Below are positions 7,710 to 24,435 of a stretch of DNA of 64,000 nucleotides, one piece after another. The stretch's first letter is position 1; every line of letters begins with the position of its first letter. The notes beneath the pieces were generated by a model that saw only the letters and a program-made list of their open reading frames with translations, made no database searches and was not told the DNA's origin. A program made the translations under genes and the position numbers. This stretch comes from Allosalinactinospora lopnorensis (lineage in GTDB: Bacteria; Actinomycetota; Actinomycetes; Streptosporangiales; Streptosporangiaceae). The stretch spans positions 1 to 64,000 of the forward strand of contig NZ_LAJC01000007.1 of the NCBI RefSeq assembly GCF_000981225.1, given 5' to 3'.

Positions 7710-8111
7710 CTATCCGCGCAACTGTGGAATGAGCACGTGGCCGGCGTTTTCCACCAGCCGCGCCACCTGATGGCCCACGATCTTCCCCTCGGCCTCGGCG
7801 GAGGTCAGTGCTGCCAGTACCGACCCGTCACTGACCGGCGTGATGAACAGGCGTCCGCGCCCTAACTGCATGATCACCTGCTCGGGCTCGCCCTGGCCAA
7901 CCACACGCGCGGTTCCCCCGGCCAGGCTCTGGAACCCACTCACGATCGCGGCGAGCTGCTCGGCTTGCTCGCGTGATCCTTCCCGGGAGGTGAGCACTAG
8001 GCCGTCGGTGGAGACCACGAGAGCCTGCACCACACCGGGCACGTCCTCGACGAAGTTCGAGACCAGCCAGGCGAATTCGTCTGCCTCGGTTACTTGAGCA
8101 AGCGCGGTCAT
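7710..8111 (-). CDS. Roadblock/LC7 domain protein, second copy
   Basis: 133 residues, clearly a paralogue of the Roadblock protein at 4428-4853: EFAWLVSNFVEDVPGVVQAL, VVSTDGLVLTSREGS, EQAEQLAAIVSGFQSLAGG and GRLFITPVSDGSVLAAL align along their length. The start at 8111 overlaps the stop of the exonuclease gene as ATGA; an ATG nine bases earlier is also possible. It probably acts as a partner of conservon-type signalling proteins. No DUF742 or GTPase gene is next to it, so it may be a leftover of a larger cluster or may serve the pseudo-GTPase fusion 3 kb away. Confidence 0.85.
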   Translation of the reverse strand: MTALAQVTEADEFAWLVSNFVEDVPGVVQALVVSTDGLVLTSREGSREQAEQLAAIVSGFQSLAGGTARVVGQGEPEQVIMQLGRGRLFITPVSDGSVLAALTSAEAEGKIVGHQVARLVENAGHVLIPQLRG

Positions 8112-8652
8112 AGCTGCCATACGTCGTAGCGTGCTGCGACGTCGTCGGGGCCGATGTGGCGTTTTCCGGGGTGCGTGGCGGTGTTGAGCACTCGGACGTG
8201 CTTGTCGAGCGGCTGGTAGTAGTCGCGGCTGAGGGAGAAAATCCACGCAGGCCGACTGTGACGGCGGGCGCGGCTGATCAGGGTGGCGATCACGTCGTCG
8301 GCCTCGGCGGTATCGATCTCGACCCAGGCCAGGCCGTAGAGGTCGAGCCCGCGCTGGACGATAGGGATCGCCTCCAGCTCCTTGCGGGCGTCGTCATCGA
8401 GCACCCCGGTGGCCTTGTAGTCAGCGTCGACCTCCTGGCGTTCGGCCGAACTGTGCTCGCCGTCGAAGACCACGATGACCTCGGGACCGTGGGCAGCTCG
8501 TCGCGGATCGCGACCCGCAGCAGGGCGAAGAACCCGAAGAGGGCGATGAGATCATGGGGCTTGTCCCGCGAGCGGATCTCAGCCGGGAACCCAAAGGCCG
8601 CCCTCCAGAGCAGGTTGTGACCATCGACCAGCAACAACGGAGCTTGAGGCAT
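8108..8652 (-). pseudogene. 5'-3' exonuclease (PolA N-terminal/FEN type), short and frameshifted
   Basis: The N-terminal frame begins [20 protein letters not shown], typical of the metal-binding first strand of 5'-3' exonucleases. The second frame continues [20 protein letters not shown], then [16 protein letters not shown] and FSLSRDYYQ, which carry further conserved acidic residues. The frames join near 8485 if one C is restored in the CCC run before ACGG. Even when restored, the protein (about 181 residues) stops at AARYDVWQL, before the helix-hairpin-helix DNA-binding part found in full family members, so it is short. Its ATG overlaps the stop of the glycosyltransferase remnant (TGATG) and its stop overlaps the Roadblock start (ATGA), which implies it was once expressed as part of an operon. 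Confidence 0.7.
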
Positions 8653-8944
8653 CACCGCACCGCCTTTGCGAACCATTCGGCGACTGTGGTGGGCCGGAAG
8701 TCCCGCGATCGGTAGTACGCAGCCCTGGACAGGTGCCGGTAGCCTACCGGCTCCCCCAGCACCTCCTAGGGAGTTTCCAGAGGGCGTGCTCCCCGCCTGA
8801 GGTGAACACGCCACGTCGCCGGCCAAGGGGCTGCGCCGACGAGGAAGGAAGGTGGTCGATGTCGAAGCAGACCACGGGCGTGCCCACGGACACGGTCTCC
8901 ATCGCAACCAGGCCGAAGGACTCACGCGGGGAGGGCGGGACCTC
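8652..8944 (-). pseudogene. C-terminal remnant of a group 1 glycosyltransferase
   Basis: Reading down the minus strand from about 8944, one frame gives [20 protein letters not shown] followed by [24 protein letters not shown] and [20 protein letters not shown], ending at a TGA that overlaps the exonuclease start. The [18 protein letters not shown] segment is the classic E-x7-E donor-sugar-binding motif of GT-B glycosyltransferases of family 4 type. The N-terminal two-thirds are missing, replaced by a fragment of a lysyl-tRNA synthetase in a different frame. Confidence 0.55.
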
Positions 8945-9117
8945 ACCTCGCCGGAGGGCACTATCCCATACTCCAAGGCCCGCAGGAAGTCCTCGTCGAG
9001 CTGTATCGCTTCGAGGTCGCCCCCAGCGGGGAGCAGGGACTGCTCGGTCAGGCGGCGGCGCCCACTCGACCGGGTCGACGAGCTCGTGATCAGGTGCGTC
9101 CCAGGGTCGATCGGATA
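8945..9117 (-). pseudogene. C-terminal fragment resembling class II lysyl-tRNA synthetase
   Basis: Minus-strand translation shows ELVDPVE in one frame and [10 protein letters not shown], then [18 protein letters not shown], in the next. This matches the C-terminal catalytic region of class II lysyl-tRNA synthetases (usually ELxDPxEQRRR and LDEDFLxALEYGMPPxGG). The fragment ends abruptly where motif 3 should follow, joining the glycosyltransferase remnant. It abuts a decayed CRISPR repeat at 9118. It is too short to be functional. Confidence 0.45.
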
Positions 9118-9207
9118 GGACTCACCCCCGCGTAGGCGGGGAGTAGGTCGTGTCACTTGGTCCAATTTAGAACCGAACTGACTCACCTCCGCATAGGCGG
9201 AGAGGTA
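9118..9207 (-). repeat. Vestigial pair of CRISPR repeats, 1.3 kb beyond array 1
   Basis: 9118-9146 matches the array 1 repeat except for its last three bases (tag instead of cac). 9179-9207 is a more degraded copy (actcacctccgcataggcgg). Their starts are 61 bp apart, the exact period of array 1, so the DNA between them is a fossil spacer. They lie on the trailer (oldest) side of array 1. Confidence 0.75.
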
Positions 9208-9905: not shown

Positions 9906-10316
9906 ATGACTCACCTGCGCCTCGATGGCGTGGAGACTTACGCGCAACTGCGCGCCATCGTGGCCGACCGCGGCGGCTACGGCGTCACCGAAATGGTGCA
10001 TCTGCGTGACCTGACCGGGAAGCAGCGCCTCAAGAGGCTCGTGTGCGAGAAAATTGCGGATTCGCTCTACAAGCATGGCATTGGGCACGTACCTGCCGAC
10101 CTTCCAAGGTACCAGGATGCCGAGGTCCGGCTTTACCTGCGCGAGACCCTGATCGGAGGGATGATCGATGCGGTCCTGTTCCCGGACGAAGAGGGCGACG
10201 AGGTGCTAATCCATGCTGCGGCGGCTGAGAAAGCGGCGTGGGATGCACGGGAGAGGTTGCGCAAGATCAAAGAGATCGTCGACGCCGACGGGGAGGCCCG
10301 GGCTGAGCGCGGGTGA
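9906..10316 (+). CDS. Conserved-looking protein of unknown function
   Basis: 136 residues from the ATG at 9906. I do not recognise the family. The protein is rich in charged helices, with YAQLRAIVADRGGYGVTEMV at the N-terminus, KQRLKRLVCEKIADSLYKHG in the middle and a long charged C-terminal helix (AAEKAAWDARERLRKIKEIV). Codon use and third-position GC are normal for the window, which supports a real gene. It lies directly after the broken HTH gene and just before a DUF6221-like remnant, all on the plus strand. Pairing of a small HTH protein with this unknown protein is suggestive of a mobile-element or plasmid-maintenance origin, but that is inference. Confidence 0.55.
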   Translation: MTHLRLDGVETYAQLRAIVADRGGYGVTEMVHLRDLTGKQRLKRLVCEKIADSLYKHGIGHVPADLPRYQDAEVRLYLRETLIGGMIDAVLFPDEEGDEVLIHAAAAEKAAWDARERLRKIKEIVDADGEARAERG

Positions 10317-10320
10317 GATC

Positions 10321-10521
10321 GTGGAGTTTCTAAGAGCGCGGCTGGACGAGGATGAGCAGGTGGCAGCCGAGAGCCTGGACGTGAACGTACTCGTCGACAG
10401 GGTAGGCGGAACCGAGCCGCCCCGATGGGCCCAGGCTGGCGTCGGACTCACCCCGCGTGGACGGGGCACTCAGGTCGTAGGCGACATCGAGGTCGTAGCC
10501 GTTGGACTCACCCCCGCGTAG
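10321..10521 (+). pseudogene. DUF6221-like N-terminal fragment truncated at the CRISPR array
   Basis: From a GTG at 10321 the frame reads VEFLRARLDEDEQVAAESLD, resembling the N-terminus of small actinobacterial proteins (VxFLRARLDEDE, DUF6221 type). It then runs into the oldest, degenerate repeat of array 1 at about 10444 and stops at 10521 inside the array. The array side therefore seems to have cut off its 3' end. Identification rests on a short motif only. Confidence 0.35.
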
Positions 10522-12976
10522 GCGGGGAGCACCGCACGGCCGACCACGTTGTCGGAATGAGTGGTGGACTCACCCCCGCGTAGGCGGGGAGCACGGCTAC
10601 CTCAAGAAGGACGACGACGGATCGGACTCACCCCCGCGTAGGCGGGGAGCACCTCGGCGCCCTGCGCGATGGCCGCGAGATCCGGGACTCACCCCCGCGT
10701 AGGCGGGGAGCACTCGCCTGCACTTCGGGCACGCCCGATGAAGTTGTGACTCACCCCCGCGTAGGCGGGGAGCACGGATACTTCGCCTTATAAGCGAGAG
10801 GTCGCGGGGACTCACCCCCGCGTAGGCGGAGAGCACACCTCCGGCGGGGTGAGCTCGTAGGAGTAGGAGGACTCACCCCCGCGTAGGCGGGGAGCACGGC
10901 ACGCGCCGGTACCCGCTTACCCCAGCCGTGGACTCACCCCCGCGTAGGCGGGGAGCACCGGACAGATCGCCGGGTACGCCGTCGCCGCGGGGGACTCACC
11001 CCCGCGTAGGCGGGGAGCACGGTCCTGGGCGGGGTGGCCCAGGGCCCCTTTCTGACTCACCCCCGCGTAGGCGGGGAGCACGAGGCGAATGCCACCGTCC
11101 AGGAGATGGTGGCGGACTCACCCCCGCGTAGGCGGGGAGCACCTCGAACGCTTCGGAGATAGCGATGTCGAGGCGGACTCACCCCCGCGTAGGCGGGGAG
11201 CACTCGTAGGTCGCCGCCTTCAACACCTCGGCGAGGGACTCACCCCCGCGTAGGCGGGGAGCACGGCCCGGACGCCTGCAGCGAGATCCACACGTCGGAC
11301 TCACCCCCGCGTAGGCGGGGAGCACCGGATCTCCAGCGGCAGCTCCAGCACGTCCACGGACTCACCCCCGCGTAGGCGGGGAGCACGCCGAGCGGGAAGG
11401 GGTCTCAAAGGGGGGTCCGGACTCACCCCCGCGTAGGCGGGGAGCACCCGCACCATCTACCGGATGATCGCCGCCGGTGAAGACTCACCCCCGCGTAGGC
11501 GGGGAGCACCACCCTCGCCGTCACCGCGGTGTCGGGGGATTGGGACTCACCCCCGCGTAGGCGGGGAGCACATGCCGTTGTCGCCGGCCACGTCCTCAAT
11601 GACGGACTCACCCCCGCGTAGGCGGGGAGCACAGGTACGCGCGTTCTCGCTGCGCCGGTAGGAGGGACTCACCCCCGCGTAGGCGGGGAGCACCCCGGGA
11701 GGTCCCCACCGGCGAGACGTATATCGGACTCACCCCCGCGTAGGCGGGGAGCACAGGGATTGCAGCGAGATCGGGTAGGTGCGCGCGGACTCACCCCCGC
11801 GTAGGCGGGGAGCACCGCGGCACCGAGTACCCCAACGGCACGATCGTGGACTCACCCCCGCGTAGGCGGGGAGCACTTTGGCCAGGTCAGCGAAGTACTC
11901 ACCATCGAAGGACTCACCCCCGCGTAGGCGGGGAGCACGACTGCTTGACGAACACCCGGCAGTTCAGCGTGGACTCACCCCCGCGTAGGCGGGGAGCACC
12001 GCCCGATCCCGGGCACCCGGTCAGCGACCTTGGACTCACCCCCGCGTAGGCGGGGAGCACATGGTCGCCCCTATAGCGGCACCTCCAGTGAAGGACTCAC
12101 CCCCGCGTAGGCGGGGAGCACTCCTCTTGACCGTCACACGATGGCTCGCCCATGGACTCACCCCCGCGTAGGCGGGGAGCACAGTGAACTGGATCCCATG
12201 GATTACGACCATTTGGACTCACCCCCGCGTAGGCGGGGAGCACCTTCCAGGAACTCCACGATGGTCATGAGGCCAGGACTCACCCCCGCGTAGGCGGGGA
12301 GCACTGCGCCCGGTGGGCGCCCTGGTGGTGCCGCTGGGACTCACCCCCGCGTAGGCGGGGAGCACCCGCACCACGACCTGCAGCGGCTGCGCGAGATGGA
12401 CTCACCCCCGCGTAGGCGGGGAGCACGAGTCCGGTGGTGCGTGGCCGTGGTCGCAGGCGGACTCACCCCCGCGTAGGCGGGGAGCACGATGGATTCCCCA
12501 GCGGGCCCTTCCGGTCCACGGACTCACCCCCGCGTAGGCGGGGAGCACGTGTTCACTGTCGCCCCGAGCCGGCCCATGACCGACTCACCCCCGCGTAGGC
12601 GGGGAGCACTGGCCTTTACGCCACTTCAAGGCGGTCACGGGGGACTCACCCCCGCGTAGGCGGGGAGCACCCTGCTGGCCGGTGAGGTGCAGCCGAGCAG
12701 CGGAGACTCACCCCCGCGTAGGCGGGGAGCACATACCACCACCCTTTGAGGAACCCCCGGTTGGGGACTCACCCCCGCGTAGGCGGGGAGCACGAAGGAG
12801 GCGTGCGGCCACTCCTCGCCTTTTCGGACTCACCCCCGCGTAGGCGGGGAGCACCCCACGACGTCGGCGCTTCGCAAAAGGGGTGCGGACTCACCCCCGC
12901 GTAGGCGGGGAGCACGTTTGGTTCCACTCCGGGGCGGCGATTTCCTTGGACTCACCCCCGCGTAGGCGGGGAGCAC
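10444..12976 (-). CRISPR. CRISPR array 1, type I-E, 41 good repeats plus one degenerate
   Basis: On the minus strand the 29-base repeat starts GTGCTCCCCGCCTACGCGG and ends GGGTGAGTCC; it forms a CCCCGC/GCGGGG stem with a CTAC loop. Good repeats lie at regular 61 bp steps from 10505 to 12949 (core starts), with spacers of about 32 bases. A few steps are 58 or 62 bp because of indels or an altered first base. A degenerate repeat sits at 10444 and a point-mutated one at 10809, both on the left. Decay at the left marks the trailer, so transcription is from right to left, reading away from cas2. I found no spacer matching elsewhere in the window by eye, but did not check exhaustively. Confidence 0.98.
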
Positions 12977-13011
12977 CCTTCGCGATCAGCGCCAATGCGG
13001 CACGTTATAGA
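12977..13011 (-). promoter_or_regulatory. CRISPR array 1 leader, overlapping the cas2 stop
   Basis: The 35 bases before the first repeat match the 35 bases before array 2 at 21 positions without gaps; shared blocks are TCnATAAC, GCC and the final AAGG. The ATAA of this leader includes the cas2 stop codon, leaving only 28 non-coding bases between cas2 and the array. The array promoter must lie within cas2 or the array is read through from the cas operon. Confidence 0.65.
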
Positions 13012-13325
13012 TTTTTGACCTCTTCTAGTGTCTCCTTCGGCCAGCCGATCAACGTCAGACCATCGATCGTCCGGGGAGTGCGGCTGCCCTCGCCGTACGT
13101 CAGTACGCGGTAGCCCTGCTCGGTGTCGGCGCCATGCACCATGACCGCCCAGCCCTCCTGAGCGTCGATGGCTTCTCGCAGGCCCGCCCACAGGTGCTCG
13201 CGCACCCTTCTGGTCAGGGTGCCCACATAAACTCCGGGCGCCGGCTCCAGCATCCAGCGGGTCAACGCGCCGCGCGTGCCATCGGCGATCGCGGTCGTGG
13301 AGATGACACAGAATCCGCCAGCCAT
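13005..13325 (-). CDS. cas2e: CRISPR-associated endoribonuclease-like Cas2, type I-E
   Basis: 106 residues, the usual size of Cas2e. Its ferredoxin-like fold is recognisable from FCVISTTAIADGTRGALTRW, followed by PGVYVGTLTRRVREHLWAGL. In type I-E, Cas2 is the structural core of the Cas1-Cas2 integrase that inserts new spacers at the leader end of the array. The ATG overlaps the cas1 stop (TAATG), and its own stop codon lies inside the conserved leader block of array 1. It is the last gene of the eight-gene cas operon. Confidence 0.95.
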   Translation of the reverse strand: MAGGFCVISTTAIADGTRGALTRWMLEPAPGVYVGTLTRRVREHLWAGLREAIDAQEGWAVMVHGADTEQGYRVLTYGEGSRTPRTIDGLTLIGWPKETLEEVKNL

Positions 13326-14281
13326 TACCGGTCTGCCTCCGTGGCGTAGTTGACGCCCGATGGCAGTTCCCCGTCGGGATCCCAGAGGTTGATCACGTCT
13401 GGGGGGCCTGGACTATCCGAGCTGGGCAGATCCAGCACCTGGTAGATATCGGAGACCATTCGCGGGATCAGGCGCAGCAGCCGGAATTCCTCACGCAGGC
13501 TCAGACGTGCCGCGCGTTCAGGGTCGGTGCTCTTGTGCAGTGAGAATGCTAGGGGAACCGTCGTCTCAGCCTTGTACAGGTCGGCGATGTCGAGAGCGAA
13601 TGCCCGCTGCTGGCCATGGTGGAGTATGCCCAGCGCGGGCGAGGCCCCCAGGCTGAGGATCACTGAGGTGGCGATCCCGTACAGTGCCTGATTTCCCGAG
13701 GTCAGCGCCTTGTTCACGGGGTCCTGTGCGTCGAAGTCCGCCGGGTCGTAGCTTCGTTTGAAGCGTGGGATTCGGTGCTGCTGCGCCAGCGTCCGGTACA
13801 GCACCTTCATTCGGCGTCCTTCCAGGCCCCGGAGCTTGTCCAAGGTCAACCCCTCGGGCAGTGGTTCGGAGAAGCGCATGGTGAACAGCCGCTTGGCGGC
13901 GGCCAGGCGGCGTTCGGTGTCGGATACCACTTCCACTTGGCGGTCCAGTAAGCGGGTGCTGGTGCTGTCGTTGAGGAAGGCCGAATAGCAGCGCACTCCG
14001 CCGTCGCCGACGTGGACGATGACCGCGCCGTCGCTGGTGAGCCTTTTTACCGCTGCGTGTGTGGTGCTGGTGCCCGGGCCCAGGAGTACGCAACCGATGC
14101 CAGCGGTGGGTAGGTAGACACGTTCCTCTTCGCCGTCGTCGAATTCCACCAGTGCGCAGACACCGTTACGGTCTGCTTTGATCTGCACCGTGTCCAGGTA
14201 GAGAAAACCGAGGCGGTCGGCCACCCGGGGTAGGGCTACGGCGGTCGGCGCGCCCAGGGTTTTGGGGAGGCGGCGGGCCAT
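13325..14281 (-). CDS. cas1e: CRISPR-associated integrase Cas1, type I-E
   Basis: 318 residues. Cas1 is the metal-dependent integrase that, with Cas2, captures spacers and joins them to the first repeat. The three metal ligands are visible: Glu in LEGRRMKVLY (about residue 166), His in GILHHGQQ and Asp in ALDIADLYK. The N-terminal beta-sandwich (YLDTVQIKADRNG) and the type I-E C-terminal extension are present. Length and motifs are complete, so spacer acquisition looks intact. There are 3 bp between the cas6e stop and this start. Confidence 0.97.
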   Translation of the reverse strand: MARRLPKTLGAPTAVALPRVADRLGFLYLDTVQIKADRNGVCALVEFDDGEEERVYLPTAGIGCVLLGPGTSTTHAAVKRLTSDGAVIVHVGDGGVRCYSAFLNDSTSTRLLDRQVEVVSDTERRLAAAKRLFTMRFSEPLPEGLTLDKLRGLEGRRMKVLYRTLAQQHRIPRFKRSYDPADFDAQDPVNKALTSGNQALYGIATSVILSLGASPALGILHHGQQRAFALDIADLYKAETTVPLAFSLHKSTDPERAARLSLREEFRLLRLIPRMVSDIYQVLDLPSSDSPGPPDVINLWDPDGELPSGVNYATEADR

Positions 14282-14284
14282 GCC

Positions 14285-14926
14285 TCACCGCCGCGCGGGA
14301 ACGACGGAGAGCAGCCCGAGCCCGTAGGCACGCCCGCGGCCGATGCCTTCGACGATCGCGGATGTTAAGCGCTGCTGGTCGGTGACCTCGGCCACCCCGT
14401 CGAACTGGATGCCGTGGTTGAGCAGCCGGTCGTTGTCGCCGTGTCGGCGGACATCAGAGCCGAAGGCGTAGCGGCTGCTGTCCAGTGTTACCGGGGCCAA
14501 CCCCGCGTCATGGGCCTTGCGCCGCCACCAGTCGTTGGCCTGGTCGCCGTAGAGGGCTTTGCGTGTGCCTCGCTTTTTTGGGTTTTCGGGGTCGCGCACC
14601 GCTTTGGTGGGGTTGGCCGCGATCCGGTAGTACACGGGTGTTCCCTCGGTCAGGTGTTCGAACAATGGAAGCAGCGAGCGGCTACGCGCGCTGGGGAACG
14701 CCGAGAGGTCGGGGGCAATCTGTGATTGCACCAGCAACTGCAGTGCGCAGTCGTCGGGCTCGACCCGGTAGAGCGCACCGGCCTGGCGACGGGGTTGCGG
14801 GCCGAGCCCGTCAGGAAACATCCTCATCAGTTTTTTGTGCAGGGCTGAGGCGGTGTAGCGAAGGTGCTCGCTCTGGGGGCCGGTCAGCGTGGTGTGGGTG
14901 AGCCAGAGTTGGGCGGGCAGGGTCAA
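14285..14926 (-). CDS. cas6e: CRISPR pre-crRNA endoribonuclease Cas6e (CasE)
   Basis: 213 residues. Cas6e cleaves the array transcript within each repeat and stays bound to the 3' hairpin of the mature crRNA as part of Cascade. The likely catalytic histidine is in ALHKKLMRMFPD (about residue 30), the usual place in this family, and the C-terminal glycine-rich loop is GIGRGRAYGLGLLSVVP. The start is a TTG overlapping the cas5 stop as TTGA. It must process two repeat sequences that differ in three positions: two at the 5' end and one in the hairpin loop. Confidence 0.95.
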   Translation of the reverse strand: MTLPAQLWLTHTTLTGPQSEHLRYTASALHKKLMRMFPDGLGPQPRRQAGALYRVEPDDCALQLLVQSQIAPDLSAFPSARSRSLLPLFEHLTEGTPVYYRIAANPTKAVRDPENPKKRGTRKALYGDQANDWWRRKAHDAGLAPVTLDSSRYAFGSDVRRHGDNDRLLNHGIQFDGVAEVTDQQRLTSAIVEGIGRGRAYGLGLLSVVPARR

Positions 14927-15666
14927 CGCTCCTCCTCGATGGCTTTCGCGATCGTGGCGTAGCCGTGCATGCCGGTGCCCGCACTCCCCTTGGCGGGCGG
15001 GTCGATGGGCAGTTCTACGGCTCCTCGTGTCAAAAAGGCGCGGTTATGTGGACTGCGCGCCACGGGCACGTCGTTGATGCGAACGTCGGGGGCACCGCGT
15101 TCCTCGGGAGGGACGTCGTGAAGGGCGGTGATCTCCCACATGCCCACCTCGCGGGGTGAGAGGTATAGCGGCGTGGTTTGGGCCATCCGCAGCGGGGTGG
15201 AGGTGCCGGTGCCCAGCAGTATTGGCAGCGCTGGTGGGCAGCCACGCCGGCCGAGGTAGGGTGCCCAGCGCGGGACGCGCAGCGCCTGGGCTAGTTCGTC
15301 CACCAGGGGGGAGGGGCCAGCGAGGAAGGCGGTGAAGGCTGCGTCAGCCAGGTAGGCGCGACGGGTGATGACGGCGCTCTTGCGGCGTTTGCGTTCGGCG
15401 GTGACCATCTGTTCTTCAGAGGAGCGGCCTCCGCCCACGGTGTGGTAGTCGGTGAGCACCCGCCCTGGGCGGTCGCGGCGCACCAGCAGCTCCAGACTCG
15501 CCCACTGCTCGGGCAGCGGTTGGTGGCGCTCGATGCCGCGGGCCGCGGCGAGCAGCCCCAAGATGCCTGAGCGCGTGGGGTAGGGGTAGGTGTCGCGCTC
15601 ATCGAATGTGGAGCGGACCCCCCATGACTGCAAGGGGCCGGTCAGCAGTAGCGCCAGGGTCGTCAC
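14923..15666 (-). CDS. cas5e: Cascade subunit Cas5e (CasD)
   Basis: 247 residues from a GTG at 15666 that overlaps the cas7 stop as GTGA; an upstream extension of the frame is arginine-rich noise. Cas5e holds the 5' handle of the crRNA in Cascade. The N-terminal LALLLTGPLQSWGVRSTFDE matches the family signature (L-x-GPxQSWG), and RDTYPYPTRSGILGLLAAARG and the C-terminal glycine-rich end follow as expected. The 5' handle contacts the repeat bases at the end that is the same in both arrays (GTGAGTCC). Confidence 0.95.
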   Translation of the reverse strand: MTTLALLLTGPLQSWGVRSTFDERDTYPYPTRSGILGLLAAARGIERHQPLPEQWASLELLVRRDRPGRVLTDYHTVGGGRSSEEQMVTAERKRRKSAVITRRAYLADAAFTAFLAGPSPLVDELAQALRVPRWAPYLGRRGCPPALPILLGTGTSTPLRMAQTTPLYLSPREVGMWEITALHDVPPEERGAPDVRINDVPVARSPHNRAFLTRGAVELPIDPPAKGSAGTGMHGYATIAKAIEEER

Positions 15667-16937
15667 TGGTAAGCCCCCGCCACGGTGTGCTCGGTGACGG
15701 CGGCGGCGAGGTCGGGAAGCGGCAACCGGTCGCCAAAGCCTGCTGCGTCCTTGTCTACTCCTTGAGCGATCTGGTCGGCGCTGATGGTGGCGGCGTGGGC
15801 GTGCCACACGCGCCCGGTGGGGCCGAAGAAGTTCTCTACCTCGGTGACGTGCTGGCCCAGTGCCTTCAGGCTGGCCGGCAGGTGGCCCCCGACCCCTGGT
15901 TGTACCGCGCCCTCGAAGGCCGCTGCCAGGCTGACCGGGTGATCGGAGCGCATTGAGGCATACACCAGGGCCGGTGGGGTGTGCGGGGCGGTGGAGGTCC
16001 GCTTGCCCGAGGGAACCGCCAGCGCGAAAGCGCGTAGGAAGAGCCCGGCGAGCTCGGCTGCGGCCCGGATGCCGTCCGCATTTTGAGCCATGTATGCGGC
16101 GAGGTCGCCCAGGTCCAGGGTGGCGTAGCGGTAGAAGACCCCGCTGGCGTACTCGGCGGTGCCCAAATGGGCGCTGCCGCTGCTCTCCTTTCCGGTGAGC
16201 AGGTCATCCACCGCGGTGAAGTAGTCGACCTCGAACTTGGCCTCGTGGGTGGTGAAGGCGTGGGCGACTTGGGAGGCGCCGTCGATGCGGCCTTCGGGGA
16301 GGGCGGCGATCATCCGCCCGAACAGCGCCAGCCCGGCGCCGGTGCACTCTTTGAGGACTTTGAGCAGCTCCTTCTGCCACTTTTTGTCCTTACGGCCGTG
16401 GACGGTAGGCAGTTCCTCGCCTTCGGGGGCAGAGTCGGCGGCGCGCTGGTAGTCCTCGCGGTGGGCCTCGGCCAGGTCAGCCAGGCGGGGAATGTCGCTG
16501 TCGTTCAGGTAGAGCAGGACGTTGGTGAGCAGTTTGGAGGCTTCGTCCTCCTCTGCGGTGTGTTTCTTGCGGGGCTGCTTGCGCCCGCCGTCCTCTTCTG
16601 CCTCTGCCTCGGCCTCGTCGTCCTTGTCATCAAGCATGGTGAACAGGTCGCGGGCGGCGATCTGGGCGGTGCGCTCGGGCCAGCCGCGGTGTTGCAACTC
16701 CTCGGCGATCTGTTCGCCGTGCGCCCGGGACCTCGATCCGAAATCCCAGTCGGCGCCGTTGGTCAGCTCCTGCAGCTTCGTGCGTGTGGCGCGTTTGTAG
16801 CACTGGCTGGAGACCCGCATCCGGGTGGCCCCGCCATAGGAGAGTTCTTTGGGCGCGCCCATGTCGTCACGGTTGAGGTTGGCGAACGGGACGGCCTGGA
16901 CGATGTGCAGGTCGAGAAAGCGCGGCGTGGCAGGCAT
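15663..16937 (-). CDS. cas7e: Cascade backbone subunit Cas7e (CasC/Cse4)
   Basis: 424 residues. Cas7e polymerises along the crRNA to make the Cascade backbone. The N-terminal LDLHIVQAVPFANLNRDDMG and GGATRMRVSSQCYKRATR are highly characteristic of the family. The protein is longer than many homologues because of a low-complexity acidic-then-basic insert near residues 100-135 (DDEAEAEAEEDGG, then RKQPRKK). A clear AAGGA ribosome binding site precedes the ATG. A 45 bp gap separates it from cse2. Confidence 0.96.
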   Translation of the reverse strand: MPATPRFLDLHIVQAVPFANLNRDDMGAPKELSYGGATRMRVSSQCYKRATRTKLQELTNGADWDFGSRSRAHGEQIAEELQHRGWPERTAQIAARDLFTMLDDKDDEAEAEAEEDGGRKQPRKKHTAEEDEASKLLTNVLLYLNDSDIPRLADLAEAHREDYQRAADSAPEGEELPTVHGRKDKKWQKELLKVLKECTGAGLALFGRMIAALPEGRIDGASQVAHAFTTHEAKFEVDYFTAVDDLLTGKESSGSAHLGTAEYASGVFYRYATLDLGDLAAYMAQNADGIRAAAELAGLFLRAFALAVPSGKRTSTAPHTPPALVYASMRSDHPVSLAAAFEGAVQPGVGGHLPASLKALGQHVTEVENFFGPTGRVWHAHAATISADQIAQGVDKDAAGFGDRLPLPDLAAAVTEHTVAGAYQ

Positions 16938-16982
16938 ATCGGTCCTTCACTTCCTAGGTGGTGGGTGGGAGGGAGATCGGGC

Positions 16983-17630
16983 TCAAGCCCTGGTGCTGCG
17001 CCACGGTGGCCGGCGCAGGTAGGACTCCTGCCAGCGTCGGGCGACGGCGTCAGGGGCGCGCAGGCGGTGCTCGATGTCGATCGCCAGTTGCGACCATTCC
17101 GGCAGGGGGCTCTGCTGGCCGTGCAGGTAGGACAGGACCGTGAACAGGTGGCGGGGCAACCGGTCGCGGTCGCTTCGGCACAGCTGCAGCAGCCGCTTCT
17201 CCCGGGGCGTCATCTTGTCCGGGCTGCTACCGCCCGGTGTTTTGCCGTCCTTGCGGTCGGCTTCGGCCAGCGCCAAGCCCAGGTCCAGGCGGGGGCGGCG
17301 GGGGGTATCGGAGGCTTGCCTGCGGTGGCGTTCCCACCGCTCGGCCAGTGTCGTGGACTTAGGGAAGTGGGCCATCAGCCCCGCGGTCAGCAGCAGCGTC
17401 TCGCGGACCCTGCGCCAGTTGAGCAGGTCGGCGTAATCCGCGCCCTCGTTGTGGGCCCACCGCAGGATGTGCCGGTTGGCCGCCAGCGCCTGGTCGGGGC
17501 CCTTGCGCACGGCCGGGCGCAGGTCGGAGCGCACGCCGCCGTACTCCAGCAACGAAGCCATATGGTGAGTGAACGCCTTGAACATGGGTGTGCGCTGTTG
17601 CCAAAGCGAGGGGCCGGTTTCAGAGGTCAT
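16983..17630 (-). CDS. cse2: Cascade small subunit Cse2 (CasB)
   Basis: 215 residues, basic and helical. Cse2 forms the dimeric belly of type I-E Cascade and helps hold the target strand. Recognisable family features are YADLLNWRRVRETLLLTAGL, then ALAEADRKDG and RLLQLCRSDRDRLPRHLFTV. The ATG overlaps the end of cse1 by 11 bp, so the two large and small subunits are translationally coupled. Confidence 0.93.
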   Translation of the reverse strand: MTSETGPSLWQQRTPMFKAFTHHMASLLEYGGVRSDLRPAVRKGPDQALAANRHILRWAHNEGADYADLLNWRRVRETLLLTAGLMAHFPKSTTLAERWERHRRQASDTPRRPRLDLGLALAEADRKDGKTPGGSSPDKMTPREKRLLQLCRSDRDRLPRHLFTVLSYLHGQQSPLPEWSQLAIDIEHRLRAPDAVARRWQESYLRRPPWRSTRA

Positions 17631-19275
17631 CGCTGCCTTCCGGGCTGCGTGCGGATACGGGCCAGGGGCGGTGTTTGATGATCGAGCGGTGCAGCATGAA
17701 GTCCTGCCGCGAGGGCGGGTGGGGGGAGCCGTTTCCCTCGTGCGCGTTCCCAGTGACCTCGTCGTAGACGGTGAGGGTGAGCCCGCGTGCGGCGACCCGC
17801 CCGTGGTGCTCCTGCGTTGGGTCGTTGGGTTCGGCGGCGCCCAGGTCCGCGGCCAAACGGTCGCCGAACACCTTTTCGGCGCGTTCCCAGAAACGGGCAG
17901 CCCCGCGCGAGGGCCAGGCTTGGTTCAGCTTCTCTCGCGGGCCGCTGCGAACGCCGTTGCGCCACGCGGAGCGCAGCCGGGCCTTGAGTAGTTCGCACTC
18001 CTTGGCCAGCAGGGCCAGCAGCCGCCGCGCGGCCGCGGCGTTCTCCTCCTCCCGGAGGCGCTCTATGAGCACTGGGGGCACGGCCGACAGCCACCAGGTG
18101 TGGTCAGTCGTCATGGGGTCCTGAGAAAACCCGACCGCGGTGATTCCCGCCGGGCCGGGCTGCTCGCCGCCCAGATGCAGGCGCTCCTCCACAAACCGCG
18201 GCGGGCGGTAGGCGCTCGCCGCGACGTGCCGACCCGAGGCACCATCGGCGGTCTCGGGAAGCAGCGCGTCCAAATCGCGCCAGAGCGCCCGGGACGGGTT
18301 GGCGCGACGCTGGGTGCCCTTGCTGCGTTCGTAGCTGAGGAACGGGTTTTCCCTCTTCAGCCCAGGCCAGGGCTTGCGGTAGGCCCAGGTGCGGTAGGCA
18401 TCGACCACGTGCCCGCCCTCGCCTGGCACCAGCAGCAGGGCATGGGTGTGCACCGCCGTCAGCAGCGCGCACATCCCTCCGGGCGGGGAGGGAGGAGCAT
18501 CGGGGTCGGGCAGCTCCTCCTGCTCCCACGGGCACAGGTCAGGGCCGGGGCGAGAGGCCGGGTCGGGGATAGCCGGGTTCGGTGGAACCAGCGACAACAG
18601 GAGCGAGGTGAACAGCGACGCTCCGCTGGGGAAGTAGGTGATCGTGTTGCGCAGCATCCCGGCCTTGGAACTGGACGAGCGTGTGCCGCCGACCGTGCGC
18701 GCGGTGATCTGGCCCGCCGCCCCGTAGTACCACTGCACGATCAACCACCACGCGGCCTCCTCAAAGGCGATCGCGCCCTGGTTGGAGGCGTGGTGGCGGG
18801 TCCACCAGGTCGCCGCGTTGTCTCCGGTGGGACGGCCCAACACGAACTTGTTGATCCCCGAGGTCTCCGCTTCCTCAACAAGGCGGGGATCCTGCAGGAA
18901 CGGCCGCTGGCCGAACAGGCAAAAGCGTCCCTCGGGCACCCGGGCGAAGTAGCGCTCCACAGGGGTGGCCCCCTCACTGGGCGGCGGCTCGCCGGACAAC
19001 CCGGGCGGGCAGGAGGCAAACGTGCCGTGGGTGAGCCAAAGGTCCCGCCGGCGGCGCCATTCGGCCACCCCCTCTTGGCGGTCCAGCCCGGTGATGCGGT
19101 AGGCCAGCGCGGTGAGGATGTGCCACAGCCCCGCATACCCCGGCGGCAGAGGCGCCTCGATGCCGCTGAGCCGGTGCGCGGTGCTCAGCAGATCGGCCAG
19201 TCCCGTCTGCGCCACGTCTCCGTCCAGGGTCCGCGCACGAATCCACGGGCGCTTCGCCAGGTCGAAACAATCCAT
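17620..19275 (-). CDS. cse1: Cascade large subunit Cse1 (CasA/Cas8e)
   Basis: 551 residues, a normal length. Cse1 recognises the PAM and recruits Cas3. The N-terminal FDLAKRPWIRARTLDGDVAQ followed by TGLADLLSTAHRLSGIEAPL is typical of the family (W-I-x-V/A near the start, then the sxxe(l)xxA pattern), and RYFARVPEGRFCLFGQRPFL leads into the mid-domain. The ribosome binding site AAGGAGAG overlaps the cas3 stop codon, so expression is coupled to cas3. No frame break was seen. Confidence 0.95.
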   Translation of the reverse strand: MDCFDLAKRPWIRARTLDGDVAQTGLADLLSTAHRLSGIEAPLPPGYAGLWHILTALAYRITGLDRQEGVAEWRRRRDLWLTHGTFASCPPGLSGEPPPSEGATPVERYFARVPEGRFCLFGQRPFLQDPRLVEEAETSGINKFVLGRPTGDNAATWWTRHHASNQGAIAFEEAAWWLIVQWYYGAAGQITARTVGGTRSSSSKAGMLRNTITYFPSGASLFTSLLLSLVPPNPAIPDPASRPGPDLCPWEQEELPDPDAPPSPPGGMCALLTAVHTHALLLVPGEGGHVVDAYRTWAYRKPWPGLKRENPFLSYERSKGTQRRANPSRALWRDLDALLPETADGASGRHVAASAYRPPRFVEERLHLGGEQPGPAGITAVGFSQDPMTTDHTWWLSAVPPVLIERLREEENAAAARRLLALLAKECELLKARLRSAWRNGVRSGPREKLNQAWPSRGAARFWERAEKVFGDRLAADLGAAEPNDPTQEHHGRVAARGLTLTVYDEVTGNAHEGNGSPHPPSRQDFMLHRSIIKHRPWPVSARSPEGSDDL

Positions 19276-19284
19276 TCACTCTCC

Positions 19285-22200
19285 TTAGCGAGGGCTGGAG
19301 CTCAACGGCGCGGTGAACAAGCCGTAATCGGGGCTGAACGCCACCCTGTGACGCTGCGGCATCGTCGAGGGCCAATAGCCCGCGCTGTCGCCGACACCGG
19401 GAATGACCGTCGGCTCGACAGCATCGCGGAAGGGTACGACAAGGACGTTGCCAAGCGTCGGGTGGTCGGCGAACCAGTCGGGGGGATCGACGGCCACCGC
19501 CTCCTGCCAGCCGGCCGGCCGCACGGGGATGCTGTGCTCCATCACGGTTCGCACCGCCGCGGGGCTGGGGCGAGCACCCGCCGGGGGTGCCTCCGGCAGG
19601 CGGGCGGTACCGTGCGGGTGCAGGTGAAACGCCCCGTCGCGCCGCCAGACGGGAAGCAGGCGCAGCGTGTCCACGCCCAGCCGGGTCGCCAAGATCCCCT
19701 CGACGTCGGTGTCGGCCTCGGTCAACCGGTGCAGGTCTCCGCGGGACAGGTCACGCCCGGGAGTGGGAATGATCGCCTGGTCGCCCCGGCTCGCGCTCAC
19801 GCTCTCCTCGGCCCACCACGACATCAACGCCTTCTCGAAGGCGCCGTCCACAGTGCCGAGGAGGCACAGGTCGGGCTCGGCGTCCTCGACGAGGCCTTGG
19901 ACGTCGCCGGGGACGTCGATCGTTCGGGTCCGTTCCCCTTCGCCGAGCGCCTCCGCGGAGGTGCGCAGCGCACGCCATGTCTGAACAAGGGCGGCATGCG
20001 GGTAGGGCACGGCCTCGGCCGGGATGCTTGATCCTCCTCGATGTCGGCGAGTACGTGCACGGTCCAGTTCCGCCATGGCGGTGGGACCTGTGCACTGGCC
20101 CGGTGCCGGTGGGCCCGCCCGGCCCGCTGCAGCAGAAGGGAGGCGGGGGCCAGTTCACTGAGCACCACGTCGAAATCCCAGTCCAGGGACTGCTCGGCCA
20201 CCTGCGTGGCCACGACCACGCACCGATGCGGGCGCTTGGGCCGCTCAGGCGGATCCTTCTCGCCGCGCTTTCCAAACAGCGCCTCCAGGTCCTCGGTGCG
20301 CTGCTCGCGGTCTGTGCCGCGCATGCGGGCGTGCAGCAGGTGGATCGCACAGCCGTCTGTCGCCTCGGCGCGCAACAGGGCGGCCAGGACCTGGGCGGTC
20401 GTCACCGTATTGACGATCACCAGCGCGCACCCGCTCCCCTGCCCCGTGCCGGCCGAATCGAAGATGGGGGTCAAGATGTCCCGGCAGAGTTGGGCCAGCC
20501 ATCTCCCTCGCTCGACCAGGTCGCGGCGTTGGCCGGCCGGGAGGGTGTAGGCGTGGGTGGTCACGGTGAGCCGGGTCGATTTTTCGGGGGATGAGGCCCG
20601 CACCGTCATCGCCCCGGTCGCGGAGTCGTAGTAGCACCAACGGATAGGGGGGAGTGAGAGGGTCCGCGTCTTCGCTGCGGCGAGAGTTGTCGACCTCTGT
20701 GTGGCCCACGATCGAGCCCCGCCGGTAGGCCTCTAGGTACTCGCGCGCCATCCCCGCCGGCAGGGTCGCCGACAGCAGCACCACCGGCACACCAAAGGCC
20801 CCCAGCCACGTGAGCACCGTGCGCAGCAGCACACGCATGTAGACGTCATAGGCGTGGCATTCGTCGATGACGACGACCTTGCCGAACAGCCCCGACAACC
20901 GAAACGGCTGATGCCACCCCGGAAGCGCGGCAGCGAGCAGCTGGTCGATCGTCGCCACCGCCAAGGGGGCATGCAGGCGCAATAACTTGTGGGTGTCCCG
21001 GTCAGAAAGGCCAAAGCGCGCCTCGAACGGTTCGGCATGTTCCTCACTGGCCACCGGGCCCAACGCGCACGCCTCGATGCCGGTGTCCAGCAGAGAGGTG
21101 TCGGCGGGATCGCCATAGAGATCGCGGAGAACACGGTCGGCTTCGTCGGAAAAGGCCGCCATCGAATGCAAAAGCTCCACGGTGGCACCCCGGCCCAGCA
21201 GCGGGGCCAGGTCCCCCACCGTGCGCCCGAACATGGCATTCGTGGTGGCCATGGTCGGCAGGCAAAACATCAAGCCCAAATCGCGCCCAAGGCGCCGGCG
21301 AAAGACCTGCAGGGCTTCTTGGGCGACTTCGGTCTTACCCCCACCCGTGCGCTCGGTGACGATGAGCAGCCCAGGACCGGTCACTTGCTTGTCCAGCTCG
21401 GAACAGATCGAGAGCTGAACCCCGCGAGGCGAGTAAGGGTAGCGCTCAGTGAAAGCGGCGTTCCGCAACCGCAGAGGGGTAAGCCCGAGGCGCCGCAGCT
21501 CGGCGCGTGCGGCCTCAACACCGGATGCGAGGAAGACAGCGGCGGATTCGGGCGTCCACTCGGGCGGCAGGTGAGGGCGCCGATGCCGTTCGATGAACGC
21601 AGCCTGCGAGACGATCCAGTCTGCGAAGGGCACCAAGCCGCAGGCAGCAACCGCGGCAAGCACGTTATCAACGGGATCGGGCAGGAGCCGGGGACGGCTC
21701 AGGGCCTGCCACACAAGTTCGGCAAAGTCGCGGCGAACGCTACCCAATCCGCAGCGCCATCGCGGGCTTCCTCCAACGCGGTACGCGCCTCGGCCCTGCT
21801 CATTGCCGAGGTGATTCGACCGTGGTGGGCGCCGATCACCAACCCGATGAACTGCCGAAGCTCCTCAGCCTCGGACTTCCCCAGCGGTTGTGTTGAGCCG
21901 GACAGCATCGCAGGCCACTCCTCCAGCACGGCGCTCGCCTGCCCCGGACGGGCATGCCCGGTCGCAGCACCCCCTGCAGAGGGAGGAGCGGCCCTCCACA
22001 TGCACCTCCAGGTACCAAGATCCCGAGCGGCGAAACCAGTGGTCGCTTTCCCCAGGTCATGAAGAGCCGCAAGCAACGCCAAGCACGTAGCACCGTCAGC
22101 CCCCAGCCCACGCAATGCAGCACGCGGAAGAACCGGAGAATCGAACGCCTCAAGCGCAAGGATGCAACCGGCCGAGTCAAGCAGATGCGCGATCAGCGGA

Positions 22201-22331
22201 TAGGCACCGTTGGGCAACCGCTCCGCAGATTTTCCCCACACCCAGCCAATATCCACCGGGCGCTCCCTTGACCCAGATCCCGCAGAGGAAGGCCCTGGAC
22301 GGGAGGCAGGCGGAAGACGGCGGTAGCTCAT
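19285..22331 (-). pseudogene. cas3: CRISPR nuclease-helicase Cas3, type I-E, split over four frames
   Basis: All parts of an HD-helicase Cas3 are present in order. Frame 1 (22331-about 21715) has the HD nuclease: LLAALHDLGKATTGF and the HHGR histidines. Frame 2 (to about 20640) has Walker A (ERTGGGKTEVA), DECH (VVVIDECHAYD) and motif III (LLSATLP). Frame 3 (to about 20030) has ATQVAEQSLDWDFDVVLSE and QRAGRAHRH (motif VI). Frame 4 (to 19285) is the C-terminal domain. Joins 1 and 3 are repaired by one C each (GAACTTG; GATCAAGC). Join 2 lies in a C6 run or the next CC and needs minus one or plus two. The restored protein is about 1015 residues, the normal size. All catalytic motifs are intact, so the gene may be whole in the organism. 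Confidence 0.9.
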
Positions 22332-22439
22332 GGGACTAGTCTGAAGAGCGGCATGGATGACCTCGCATGTTTCACGAACAATGGCCGGTTTAGGCCACAA
22401 GTCGAAAACTGCTGCAGTTCCGGGCGCTTCAATCCGGAG

Positions 22440-22512
22440 GCAACCATCCCCAATGAGCAGCAAGCAAAGGTTAACTTTCAATAACACGCCACGTTTTTGC
22501 AGCTGAGAAAGG
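22440..22512 (+). promoter_or_regulatory. CRISPR array 2 leader
   Basis: AT-richer DNA directly before the first repeat. The last 35 bases (22478-22512) match the array 1 leader at 21 of 35 positions without gaps, including TCAATAAC and the terminal AAAGG. The remaining 108 bp up to the cas3 start at 22331 must also hold the divergent cas operon promoter; I see no clear consensus boxes. Confidence 0.7.
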
Positions 22513-24435
22513 GAACTCCCCGCCTGCGCGGGGGTGAGTCCTGCGGGGCGTCCCCTCTCTGACCGGCTGTGACGAACTCCCCGCCTGCGCGGGGGTGAGT
22601 CCCTGCGCCACCACAGTCCCGCGCCGGCTCAACAGAACTCCCCGCCTGCGCGGGGGTGAGTCCCCCCACCCGGCCTCGACGAGGACGGGGACGGCGAACT
22701 CCCCGCCTGCGCGGGGGTGAGTCCAGTCCTTCTTCTTCGAGCTTGAGCGCGGCTTTGAACTCCCCGCCTGCGCGGGGGTGAGTCCATCACCATCGAATCC
22801 GACCTCGCCGAAGACACGAACTCCCCGCCTGCGCGGGGGTGAGTCCCCCCCGTCGAGAGGACCACCCCCCGTGGCGTAGAACTCCCCGCCTGCGCGGGGG
22901 TGAGTCCGTGATGCTGCAGGACCAGGGCGCCGGGAAGGGGAACTCCCCGCCTGCGCGGGGGTGAGTCCGCGGTCGGCCTCAGTCCACCCGCCGGGGGGTT
23001 GAACTCCCCGCCTGCGCGGGGGTGAGTCCTTGCGGGCAGACAGGGTGACGATGTCGTTGGCGAACTCCCCGCCTGCGCGGGGGTGAGTCCGACTGGAAAC
23101 CGCCCCGGTGGCTGCCGCGCCGGAACTCCCCGCCTGCGCGGGGGTGAGTCCAGACACGCCCCGGTGCAACGGGACCGAGCAGCGAACTCCCCGCCTGCGC
23201 GGGGGTGAGTCCATGCCCCGGAACATGCCCGCGACCGGGGCAGAGAACTCCCCGCCTGCGCGGGGGTGAGTCCGCGCGCACCACCTTGCAACGATGCGGT
23301 CGCATGAACTCCCCGCCTGCGCGGGGGTGAGTCCGTCGGGGACGGTCAGCGCGAGCAGGATAGCCAGAACTCCCCGCCTGCGCGGGGGTGAGTCCGAGCT
23401 TCTGACGCTTCCCTCCTGCGACGCCTGGAACTCCCCGCCTGCGCGGGGGTGAGTCCGGCGCCGAGATGTGGGACTGGGCGTAGTCCAGGAACTCCCCGCC
23501 TGCGCGGGGGTGAGTCGAACGGCACCGCGCAGGACGGCCCGACCACCGCGAACTCCCCGCCTGCGCGGGGGTGAGTCCACGTGCTGCAGGCAGGGCCCTA
23601 CGGGGCGGTGGAACTCCCCGCCTGCGCGGGGGTGAGTCACATGGCCCTCAGGTAGTGCTCGGACCCGGCCACGAACTCCCCGCCTGCGCGGGGGTGAGTC
23701 CTGGGCCAGGCCCAGGCCGAGGCCGAGCGGGTCGAACTCCCCGCCTGCGCGGGGGTGAGTCCGGTTATATGCCTGTGACCTGATCATTCCTCCGAGAACT
23801 CCCCGCCTGCGCGGGGGTGAGTCCTGCACTCTCACCCGGTGCGGCCCCTCGACGACGAACTCCCCGCCTGCGCGGGGGTGAGTCCGCAGGTATCTCTACG
23901 AGCCCCACGCCCCCGCGGAACTCCCCGCCTGCGCGGGGGTGAGTCCTCCGACAGATGCCCGCAAGATCGGAGCCCGCAGAACTCCCCGCCTGCGCGGGGG
24001 TGAGTCCCCGGATTCGAGCACCTGCACCTGTACCGCGACGAACTCCCCGCCTGCGCGGGGGTGAGTCTGGAGAGTGGACCCCTACCTCACCACGACCGGG
24101 CGAACTCCCCGCCTGCGCGGGGGTGAGTCCACCTTGTCTTTCCAGAAGTTCAGCGCGCCGCTGAACTCCCCGCCTGCGCGGGGGTGAGTCCCCCATGGAC
24201 ACCGCCACCCCGCATGACCTGGCGAACTCCCCGCCTGCGCGGGGGTGAGTCCACGTACTGGCACGTCCACCACGCCTCGTTGCTGAACTCCCCGCCTGCG
24301 CGGGGGTGAGTCCGTTCCTCGCTGGCGATTCACGAGCGGGGTGTCGAACTCCCCGCCTACGCGGGGGTGAGTCCGCGCCCGACAGTCCGGCATGAGCGGA
24401 CCACGGGAACTCCCCGCCTGCGCGGGGGTGAGCCC
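22513..24435 (+). CRISPR. CRISPR array 2, type I-E, 32 repeats
   Basis: The 29-base repeat starts GAACTCCCCGCCTGCGCGG and ends GGGTGAGTCC; it differs from the array 1 repeat at positions 2, 3 and 14. Repeats start at 22513, 22574 and every 61 bp (twice 62 bp steps near 23673 and 23796, and at 24102) to 24407, with 32-base spacers. Repeats at 23489, 23611 and 24040 have altered ends. The repeats at 24346 (TAC in the loop, as in array 1) and 24407 (GAGCCC end) are the most altered, so the trailer is on the right and transcription runs left to right, away from cas3. Confidence 0.98.

What the first reader, a model, noticed from the sequence alone, without database searches (positions are those of the whole stretch)
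12977..22512. Two arrays with different repeats share a 35-base leader, and one leader overlaps the cas2 stop
The 35 bases before each array agree at 21 positions without a gap, although the repeats differ at positions 2, 3 and 14. Both leaders face the cas operon. In array 1 the conserved ATAA block is also the cas2 stop codon, leaving 28 non-coding bases. The integrase signal and a coding sequence therefore constrain each other, and array 1 may be read from the cas operon promoter.
Basis: seen in the sequence. Interest (0 to 1): 0.58.

Follow-up and report, generated by a model that had tools for sequence, protein, structure and literature searches.

The report
CRISPR leader reaches into cas2 gene
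In this actinobacterium the DNA stretch that probably marks where new CRISPR memories are inserted runs into the end of the cas2 gene, and many relatives show the same overlap, so one piece of DNA serves both as gene end and as probable insertion signal; the parts are ordinary, the double use is mildly unusual.

Summary
A type I-E cas operon is flanked by two arrays whose leaders face it; 21 of 35 bases agree, the repeats differ at positions 2, 3 and 14, and the cas2 stop lies 28 nt before array 1. The likeness goes further than reported: 30 of 50 bases, so leader 1 includes about the last 20 nt of cas2. A profile built from 86 leaders of other loci ranks the window's two leaders first and second of 127,902 positions. 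The family motif is a CAGGTC core (-13 to -8), AAGT at the repeat and a looser A/T-rich part (about -46 to -18). In 41 of 69 distinct cas2-side arrays, window included, the cas2 stop lies within 47 nt of the first repeat. In 21 such loci with a second array, cas2 coding bases match the other array's leader at 287 of 518 positions (chance 24%; control 142 of 540). Overlap and separation interchange at least 10 times on a Cas1 tree. So the leader shapes the cas2 end; the reverse constraint, a role of ATAA, and read-through transcription are untested. The two-array layout is known from Streptomyces avermitilis; a cas2 stop inside a repeat is reported for S. thermophilus CRISPR4.

The parts
13005..13325 (-). 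cas2 (Cas2e, 106 aa); TAA stop at 13007-13005; the Cas2 domain ends at aa 92, so the leader overlaps only the tail
   Evidence: TIGR01873 E 7.4e-18, above cut-off, aa 7-92; PF09707 E 2.9e-26, aa 6-92
12977..13024 (-). leader of array 1, about 48 nt: 28 nt non-coding plus the last 20 nt of cas2 (stop included)
   Evidence: 13 of the 20 coding nt equal array 2's leader, chance mean 4.1; profile over -50 to -1 ranks 2 of 127,902 positions
12984..12990 (-). core of leader 1, GCTGATC (family consensus GCAGGTC)
   Evidence: two mismatches within CAGGTC
12948..12976 (-). first repeat of array 1
10504..12976 (-). array 1, 41 repeats with 32-33 nt spacers (one of 29 nt), reading in the direction of the cas genes
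22465..22512 (+). leader of array 2, wholly non-coding if cas3 starts at 22331
   Evidence: profile ranks 1 of 127,902 positions; Cas3 of L013 aligns from its residue 1 at 22331
22499..22505 (+). core of leader 2, GCAGCTG
   Evidence: two mismatches within CAGGTC
22513..24435 (+). array 2, 32 repeats; terminal repeat degenerate (ends GAGCCC)
13325..14281 (-). cas1 (Cas1e, 318 aa); the E, H and D aligned with E. coli Cas1 residues 141, 208 and 221 are kept (that these are the catalytic residues is recalled)
   Evidence: TIGR03638 E 1.5e-94; alignment with E. coli Cas1
14285..14926 (-). cas6/casE
   Evidence: TIGR01907
14923..15807 (-). cas5/casD ORF (domain from aa 50; the true start is probably inside)
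   Evidence: TIGR01868
15663..16937 (-). cas7/casC
   Evidence: TIGR01869
16983..17630 (-). cse2/casB
   Evidence: PF09485 E 3.8e-9; no NCBIfam match
17620..19275 (-). cse1/casA
   Evidence: TIGR02547
19285..22331 (-). cas3, in four pieces in alternating frames in this assembly
   Evidence: tblastn with four relatives' Cas3; two of the three ORF pieces scanned hit Cas3 HD or helicase models, the third (19285-20076) none

Best explanation
This is an actinobacterial type I-E CRISPR-Cas locus with one array on each side of the cas operon. Each array is preceded by a copy of a leader about 48 bp long that marks the insertion point for Cas1-Cas2: a conserved CAGGTC core 8-13 bp before the repeat, AAGT (here AAGG) touching the repeat, and a looser A/T-rich part at about -46 to -18. 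At array 1 the leader has no room of its own. Its far half is the last codons and the stop of cas2, and the C-terminal tail of Cas2 has adjusted to the DNA signal. New spacers go in at the leader-repeat junction, downstream of the stop, so cas2 is never damaged. Array 1 probably also receives transcripts running out of cas2. Shown by sequence: shared leader, family-wide motif, its presence in cas2 coding DNA, recurrent overlap. Inferred: recognition by Cas1-Cas2 (perhaps with a host bending protein) and read-through transcription.
For: Profile from 86 leaders, window and its nearest relative L013 excluded, ranks the two window leaders 1 and 2 of 127,902 positions. Core within one mismatch of CAGGTC in 82 of 89 leaders of the same Cas1 clade (window excluded), 15 of 17 of a more distant clade and 15 of 16 from other families of the class. 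cas2 stop within 47 nt of the first repeat in 41 of 69 distinct arrays. In 21 overlap loci with a second array, cas2 coding bases equal the other leader at 287 of 518 positions against a chance level of 24%; in 18 loci without overlap the cas2 end matches at 142 of 540. Upstream-block score: fully coding copies mean 7.5 (n 17), non-coding leaders left out one at a time 6.6 (n 56, P 0.63 for a difference), cas2 ends without leader -8.3 (n 17, P 4e-7). Tails are unrelated peptides (KNL, SAIVK, NVPL, ESVNP). Stop triplets are concentrated at -21 (30%), -31 (23%), -32 (14%), -42 (13%) and -5 (19%) in 70 non-coding leaders against 2.8% further upstream, and 26 of 41 overlapping cas2 stops start at -21, -31 or -42. 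Acquisition at both arrays of this layout was seen in S. avermitilis (PMC4762764, passages).
Against: Both window leaders depart from the core at two positions; only 7 of 89 same-clade leaders do so by two or more. The upstream block is weak in part of the family: with a profile from upstream or turned arrays only, 10 of 20 overlapping copies rank in the top 5 of their operon, but 8 of 20 rank below 50. In 7 of 21 loci the coding match to the second leader does not reach P 0.01. Loci are related, so the P values are too small. There are no acquisition, binding or transcript data for this genome; cas3 is in pieces in this assembly.
Confidence: 0.8

Rival explanations
1. The shared upstream blocks are a promoter for each array, and only the bases next to the repeat guide integration. 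In array 1 the promoter would lie in the cas2 end.
For: The letters from -21 to -18 resemble the start of a -10 box, and TANNNT starts at -21 in 16 of 123 distinct leaders, the only position from -90 to +9 that reaches 6. PMC4762764 says leaders appear to promote array transcription (passage).
Against: No position has a near-TTGACA box (5 of 6) in 4 or more of the 123 leaders; no sigma-70-like promoter at either window leader; the window's hexamers at -21 are CATTGG and CGTTTT. PMC4762764 predicted the -10 elsewhere, overlapping the first repeat (section read).
Confidence: 0.25
2. The overlap is neutral: the leader offers stop triplets at fixed places and the Cas2 tail is dispensable, so cas2 simply ends at the first in-frame stop it meets; no benefit from the overlap and no mutual constraint. 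This is compatible with the best explanation; it concerns why the overlap exists.
For: Stop triplets sit at fixed leader positions also where no gene ends; overlap and separation change at least 10 times on the tree; the tail lies outside the Cas2 domain in the window and tails are unrelated between clades.
Against: Nothing here contradicts it. Persistence of one stop position in a clade (28-29 nt in window, L013 and L014) is mild evidence for stability only.
Confidence: 0.55
3. Duplication: array 2's leader is a copy of the cas2 end plus leader 1, and the likeness is ancestry without function.
For: In 14 of 30 loci with two facing arrays the own second leader is the best match to leader 1; L013's two leaders agree at 41 of 50.
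Against: In the window leader 1 is closer to L013's leader 1 (39 of 50) than to its own leader 2 (30 of 50). The core positions are kept across families of the class while flanks are not, which needs selection.
Confidence: 0.05
4. Array 1 has no promoter of its own and is expressed only as the tail of the cas transcript.
For: 28 nt gap, same direction, no terminator-like site. In S. avermitilis cse1 to cas2 are co-transcribed and array I is transcribed (PMC4762764, section read).
Against: Relatives have cas2-side arrays up to 221 nt away with the same core, and array 2, which reads away from the operon, must be transcribed on its own with a similar leader.
Confidence: 0.35

Closest known systems
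Streptomyces avermitilis type I-E locus (PMC4762764)
   Same: Eight cas genes between two oppositely transcribed arrays with different 29-bp repeats, leaders aligned with each other, spacers acquired at both arrays; the paper says that in most actinomycete I-E systems two arrays are transcribed in opposite directions (passages; section 12).
   Different: The passages and section read do not mention cas2 codons as part of the leader or a family-wide leader motif; the aligned figure could not be seen.
Streptococcus thermophilus CRISPR4 (type I-E by recall)
   Same: [quoted passage not shown] 2014 (PMC5826314, passage; Carte et al. not read).
   Different: There the stop reaches the repeat itself; here it lies 28 nt before it, in the leader. 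The same passage says no new spacers were seen there.
Escherichia coli K-12 CRISPR I
   Same: Type I-E, array downstream of cas2 in the same direction; Cas1 33% identical over 276 aligned positions.
   Different: 105 nt between cas2 stop and first repeat; an IHF-dependent leader (recalled; not tested here).
Catalogues of CRISPR leader motifs (Santiago-Frangos 2021; Buyukyoruk 2025)
   Same: By title they treat leader motifs; seen only as entries in reference lists.
   Different: Neither paper is held, so I cannot say whether the actinobacterial I-E motif or the cas2 overlap is in them.

Membership tests
CRISPR-Cas type I-E | Cas1e, Cas2e, Cse1, Cse2, Cas7, Cas5 and Cas6e genes | tested here: met
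   (NCBIfam) for six and (Pfam) for Cse2: each above the curated cut-off
CRISPR-Cas type I-E | Intact cas3 | tested here: inconclusive
   homologous throughout but in alternating frames; may be assembly error
CRISPR-Cas type I-E | 29-nt repeats and 32-33 nt spacers | tested here: met
   41 and 32 repeats; one spacer of 29 nt in array 1
Actinomycete two-array I-E layout (as in S. avermitilis) | Downstream array in the cas direction, upstream array opposite, leaders facing the operon | tested here: met
   in the sample 30 of 61 loci with arrays have both leaders facing the operon
Actinomycete I-E leader family found here | CAGGTC core at -13 to -8 within one mismatch | tested here: not met
   both window leaders have two mismatches, though the whole profile ranks them 1 and 2
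Actinomycete I-E leader family found here | Directs Cas1-Cas2 integration | not testable with these tools
   needs an acquisition or in vitro integration assay
IHF-dependent I-E leader (E. coli type) | IHF site and host IHF required for integration | not tested
   no IHF site search or host-factor search was made

The most novel reading that the evidence does not exclude
In actinomycete I-E systems the DNA site on which the Cas1-Cas2 integrase acts is partly written inside the gene of Cas2 itself, in several frames and with the leader supplying the stop codon. This ties enzyme and target site together, so the adaptation genes travel with a matching landing site, and it forces the Cas2 tail to follow the leader.
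Probability: 0.35. Interest if true: 0.6.

Novelty: new variant of a known kind. Interest (0 to 1): 0.45.

Why it matters
If the far half of the leader is needed for adaptation, part of a protein-coding gene is also the landing site of the machine it helps to encode. Leader annotation that starts at the cas2 stop would then cut off part of the signal, and plasmids carrying array 1 without the cas2 end would lack it. The aligned motif (CAGGTC...AAGT plus the -46 to -18 part) gives concrete positions to mutate in an actinomycete where acquisition already works, and it bears on how I-E integrases find the leader in bacteria outside the E. coli model.

Tried and rejected
A 10-bp helical phasing of the A/T blocks: not supported (permutation P 0.61).

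A standard promoter in the leader: no sigma-70-like site in the window regions and no shared -35-like box. One search did list three terminator-like sites on the minus strand near array 2 (two are repeat hairpins, one at 22503-22488 lies in leader 2); they were not pursued.

Extra stops in the leader as such: entering 70 non-coding leaders in three frames gives a read-through fraction of 0.46, like shuffled leaders (0.48). The leader has no more stops than its composition gives; they are only concentrated at fixed places.

Spacer origins: both arrays against 50,697 phage records gave weak matches only (best E 1e-4 for array 1, in several pieces, and 5e-2 for array 2), no convincing protospacer. 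Plasmids were not searched.

Decay of the system from the cas3 frame changes: not claimed, because another gene of the window (5'-3' exonuclease, 8108-9186) also looks split between frames, which suggests assembly errors.

Rows set aside: 64 loci were tried (window, three named, 60 fetched). Class loci L105 and L124 had weakly read arrays. The registers of L092 and L113 seem off by one base. One search found matches in 127 of 341 family genomes; only the 60 regions were read.

Full report
What is there. The window holds a type I-E cas operon on the minus strand, cas3 to cas2, with array 1 directly after cas2 (first repeat 12976, minus strand) and array 2 beyond cas3 (first repeat 22513, plus strand). 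Array 1 has 41 repeats and array 2 has 32, with 32-33 nt spacers apart from one of 29 nt; degenerate repeats lie at or beyond the ends far from the operon, which agrees with leaders facing the cas genes.

More than chance. With array 2's 35-mer as query no other place in the window, both strands, reaches 21 except array 1's leader; with array 1's, three places besides itself and leader 2 do. The agreement continues upstream: 30 of 50 and 35 of 60. A position weight profile from 86 leaders of other loci (effective number 65), excluding the window and its nearest relative L013, over -50 to -1 ranks leader 2 first and leader 1 second of 127,902 positions. Taken apart, the halves are less striking: -50 to -21 ranks 19 (leader 1) and 59 (leader 2), and -21 to -1 ranks 12 and 2.

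Relatives. I read 60 regions around Cas1 relatives in the same family, one of them this genome's second locus, three named loci (Nocardiopsis ansamitocini L013, Allokutzneria L014, a Propionibacteriaceae MAG L015) and 26 short loci of the class search, partly repeats. Arrays and leaders were found by script. Of 61 loci with arrays, 30 have both leaders facing the operon; in 12 more the downstream array faces cas2 and the upstream array is turned round. Consensus repeats differ between the two arrays in 33 of 42 loci with both, so differing repeats are usual. In 90 leaders of the same clade the weighted frequencies of C-13, A-12, G-11, T-9, C-8, A-4, A-3 and G-2 are 81-97%, with a looser upstream part (A at -39 to -37 in 57-59%, T or A at -31 in 95%, A/T-rich at -20 to -18). 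The core is within one mismatch of CAGGTC in 82 of 89 same-clade leaders (window excluded), 15 of 17 of the distant clade and 15 of 16 class loci; both window leaders have two mismatches.

The overlap with cas2. Among 69 distinct cas2-side arrays facing cas2, 41 have the stop within 47 nt of the repeat, most often with the stop triplet starting at -21 (18), -42 (6), -16 (4) or -24 (4); the window's -31 is shared only with L013. In 70 non-coding leaders stop triplets are concentrated at -21, -31, -32, -42 and -5 (30, 23, 14, 13 and 19%, against 2.8% upstream): the leader's own blocks supply many of the cas2 stops. In 21 overlapping loci with a second array, cas2 coding bases match the other leader at 287 of 518 positions (chance 24%), 14 of 21 loci at P below 0.01; the cas2 ends of 18 non-overlapping loci match at 142 of 540. 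In the window it is 13 of 20. A profile of non-coding leaders scores the coding copies as high as non-coding ones and far above cas2 ends without a leader. Against this, with a profile from upstream or turned arrays only, 10 of 20 overlapping copies are in the top 5 of their operon and 8 of 20 are below rank 50, all eight with the stop 13 or 18 nt before the repeat. At least one of these still matches its own second leader well (L051, 25 of 30), so the upstream part differs between lineages. The tails encoded by the overlap are unrelated peptides, the stop falls in all three frames relative to the repeat (20, 8 and 2 of 30 loci, two of them with an uncertain register or in the distant clade), and the tail lies outside the Cas2 domain in the window. 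The constraint is therefore on DNA. On a Cas1 tree of 69 rows overlap and separation change at least 10 times, six stop classes at least 15 times (17 of 66 inner branches are poorly supported, L117 and L119 are long branches).

How it probably works. Cas1-Cas2 integrates at the leader-repeat junction, guided by the core and the bases touching the repeat, with the upstream part assisting directly or through a bending protein. That is inference from the fixed distance to the repeat and from what is known of E. coli (recalled) and S. avermitilis; nothing here measures it. Insertion downstream of the stop leaves cas2 unharmed. Transcription from the cas promoter into array 1 is plausible: no terminator-like site lies between, and S. 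avermitilis co-transcribes cse1 to cas2.

Known or new. The layout, unequal repeats and aligned leaders are in print for S. avermitilis (PMC4762764; passages, section 12). A cas2 stop overlapping the repeat is reported for S. thermophilus CRISPR4 (PMC5826314, passage). In the listings of ten searches of the open library I saw no paper that by title or abstract describes the leader extending into cas2 codons in actinobacteria; I did not read most of them, and two leader-motif catalogues are not held. I rate it a new variant of a known kind: ordinary machinery, with a recurrent double use of the cas2 end that is quantified here.

Limits. Loci are related, so P values overstate. cas3 of the window is in pieces, perhaps through assembly error.

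Noticed in passing
window 19285-22331: cas3 is homologous along its length to intact relatives but alternates between two frames in four pieces; either decay or assembly error.
   Followed up: partly
window 8108-9186: A 5'-3' exonuclease-like gene (PF02739 on the ORF 8108-8473) also appears split between frames, which favours assembly indels as a general cause.
   Followed up: partly
window 9118-9205: Two degenerate array-1-type repeats 32 nt apart, 1.3 kb beyond the end of array 1, with an unassigned ORF (9906-10316, no Pfam match) between: a relic of a longer or interrupted array.
   Followed up: partly
L098 (G000:C4:84380-104300): A second, distant type I-E locus in the same genome (Cas1 36% identical) with its own two arrays; its two leaders are nearly identical to each other and share the CAGGTC core but not the cas2 overlap (108 nt apart).
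   Followed up: partly
window 10504-12976 and 22513-24435: The last base of the consensus repeat is C in window, L013 and L014 and in no other of the 95 same-clade arrays read, which end in G; since this base comes from the PAM in E. coli (recalled), the PAM may differ in this clade. Some window repeats end in T, G or A.
   Followed up: no
L131 (E. coli K-12, cas2 end and CRISPR I leader): The 12-mer TTAAGGTTGGTG occurs both in the last 30 nt of E. coli cas2 and in the CRISPR I leader (sequence printed), perhaps a trace of a similar overlap or duplication.
   Followed up: no
L073, L087, L088, L094, L095: Loci whose cas2-side array is turned round, with the leader at the far end; CAGGTC is present there in all five, so the core goes with the array and not with cas2.
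   Followed up: partly
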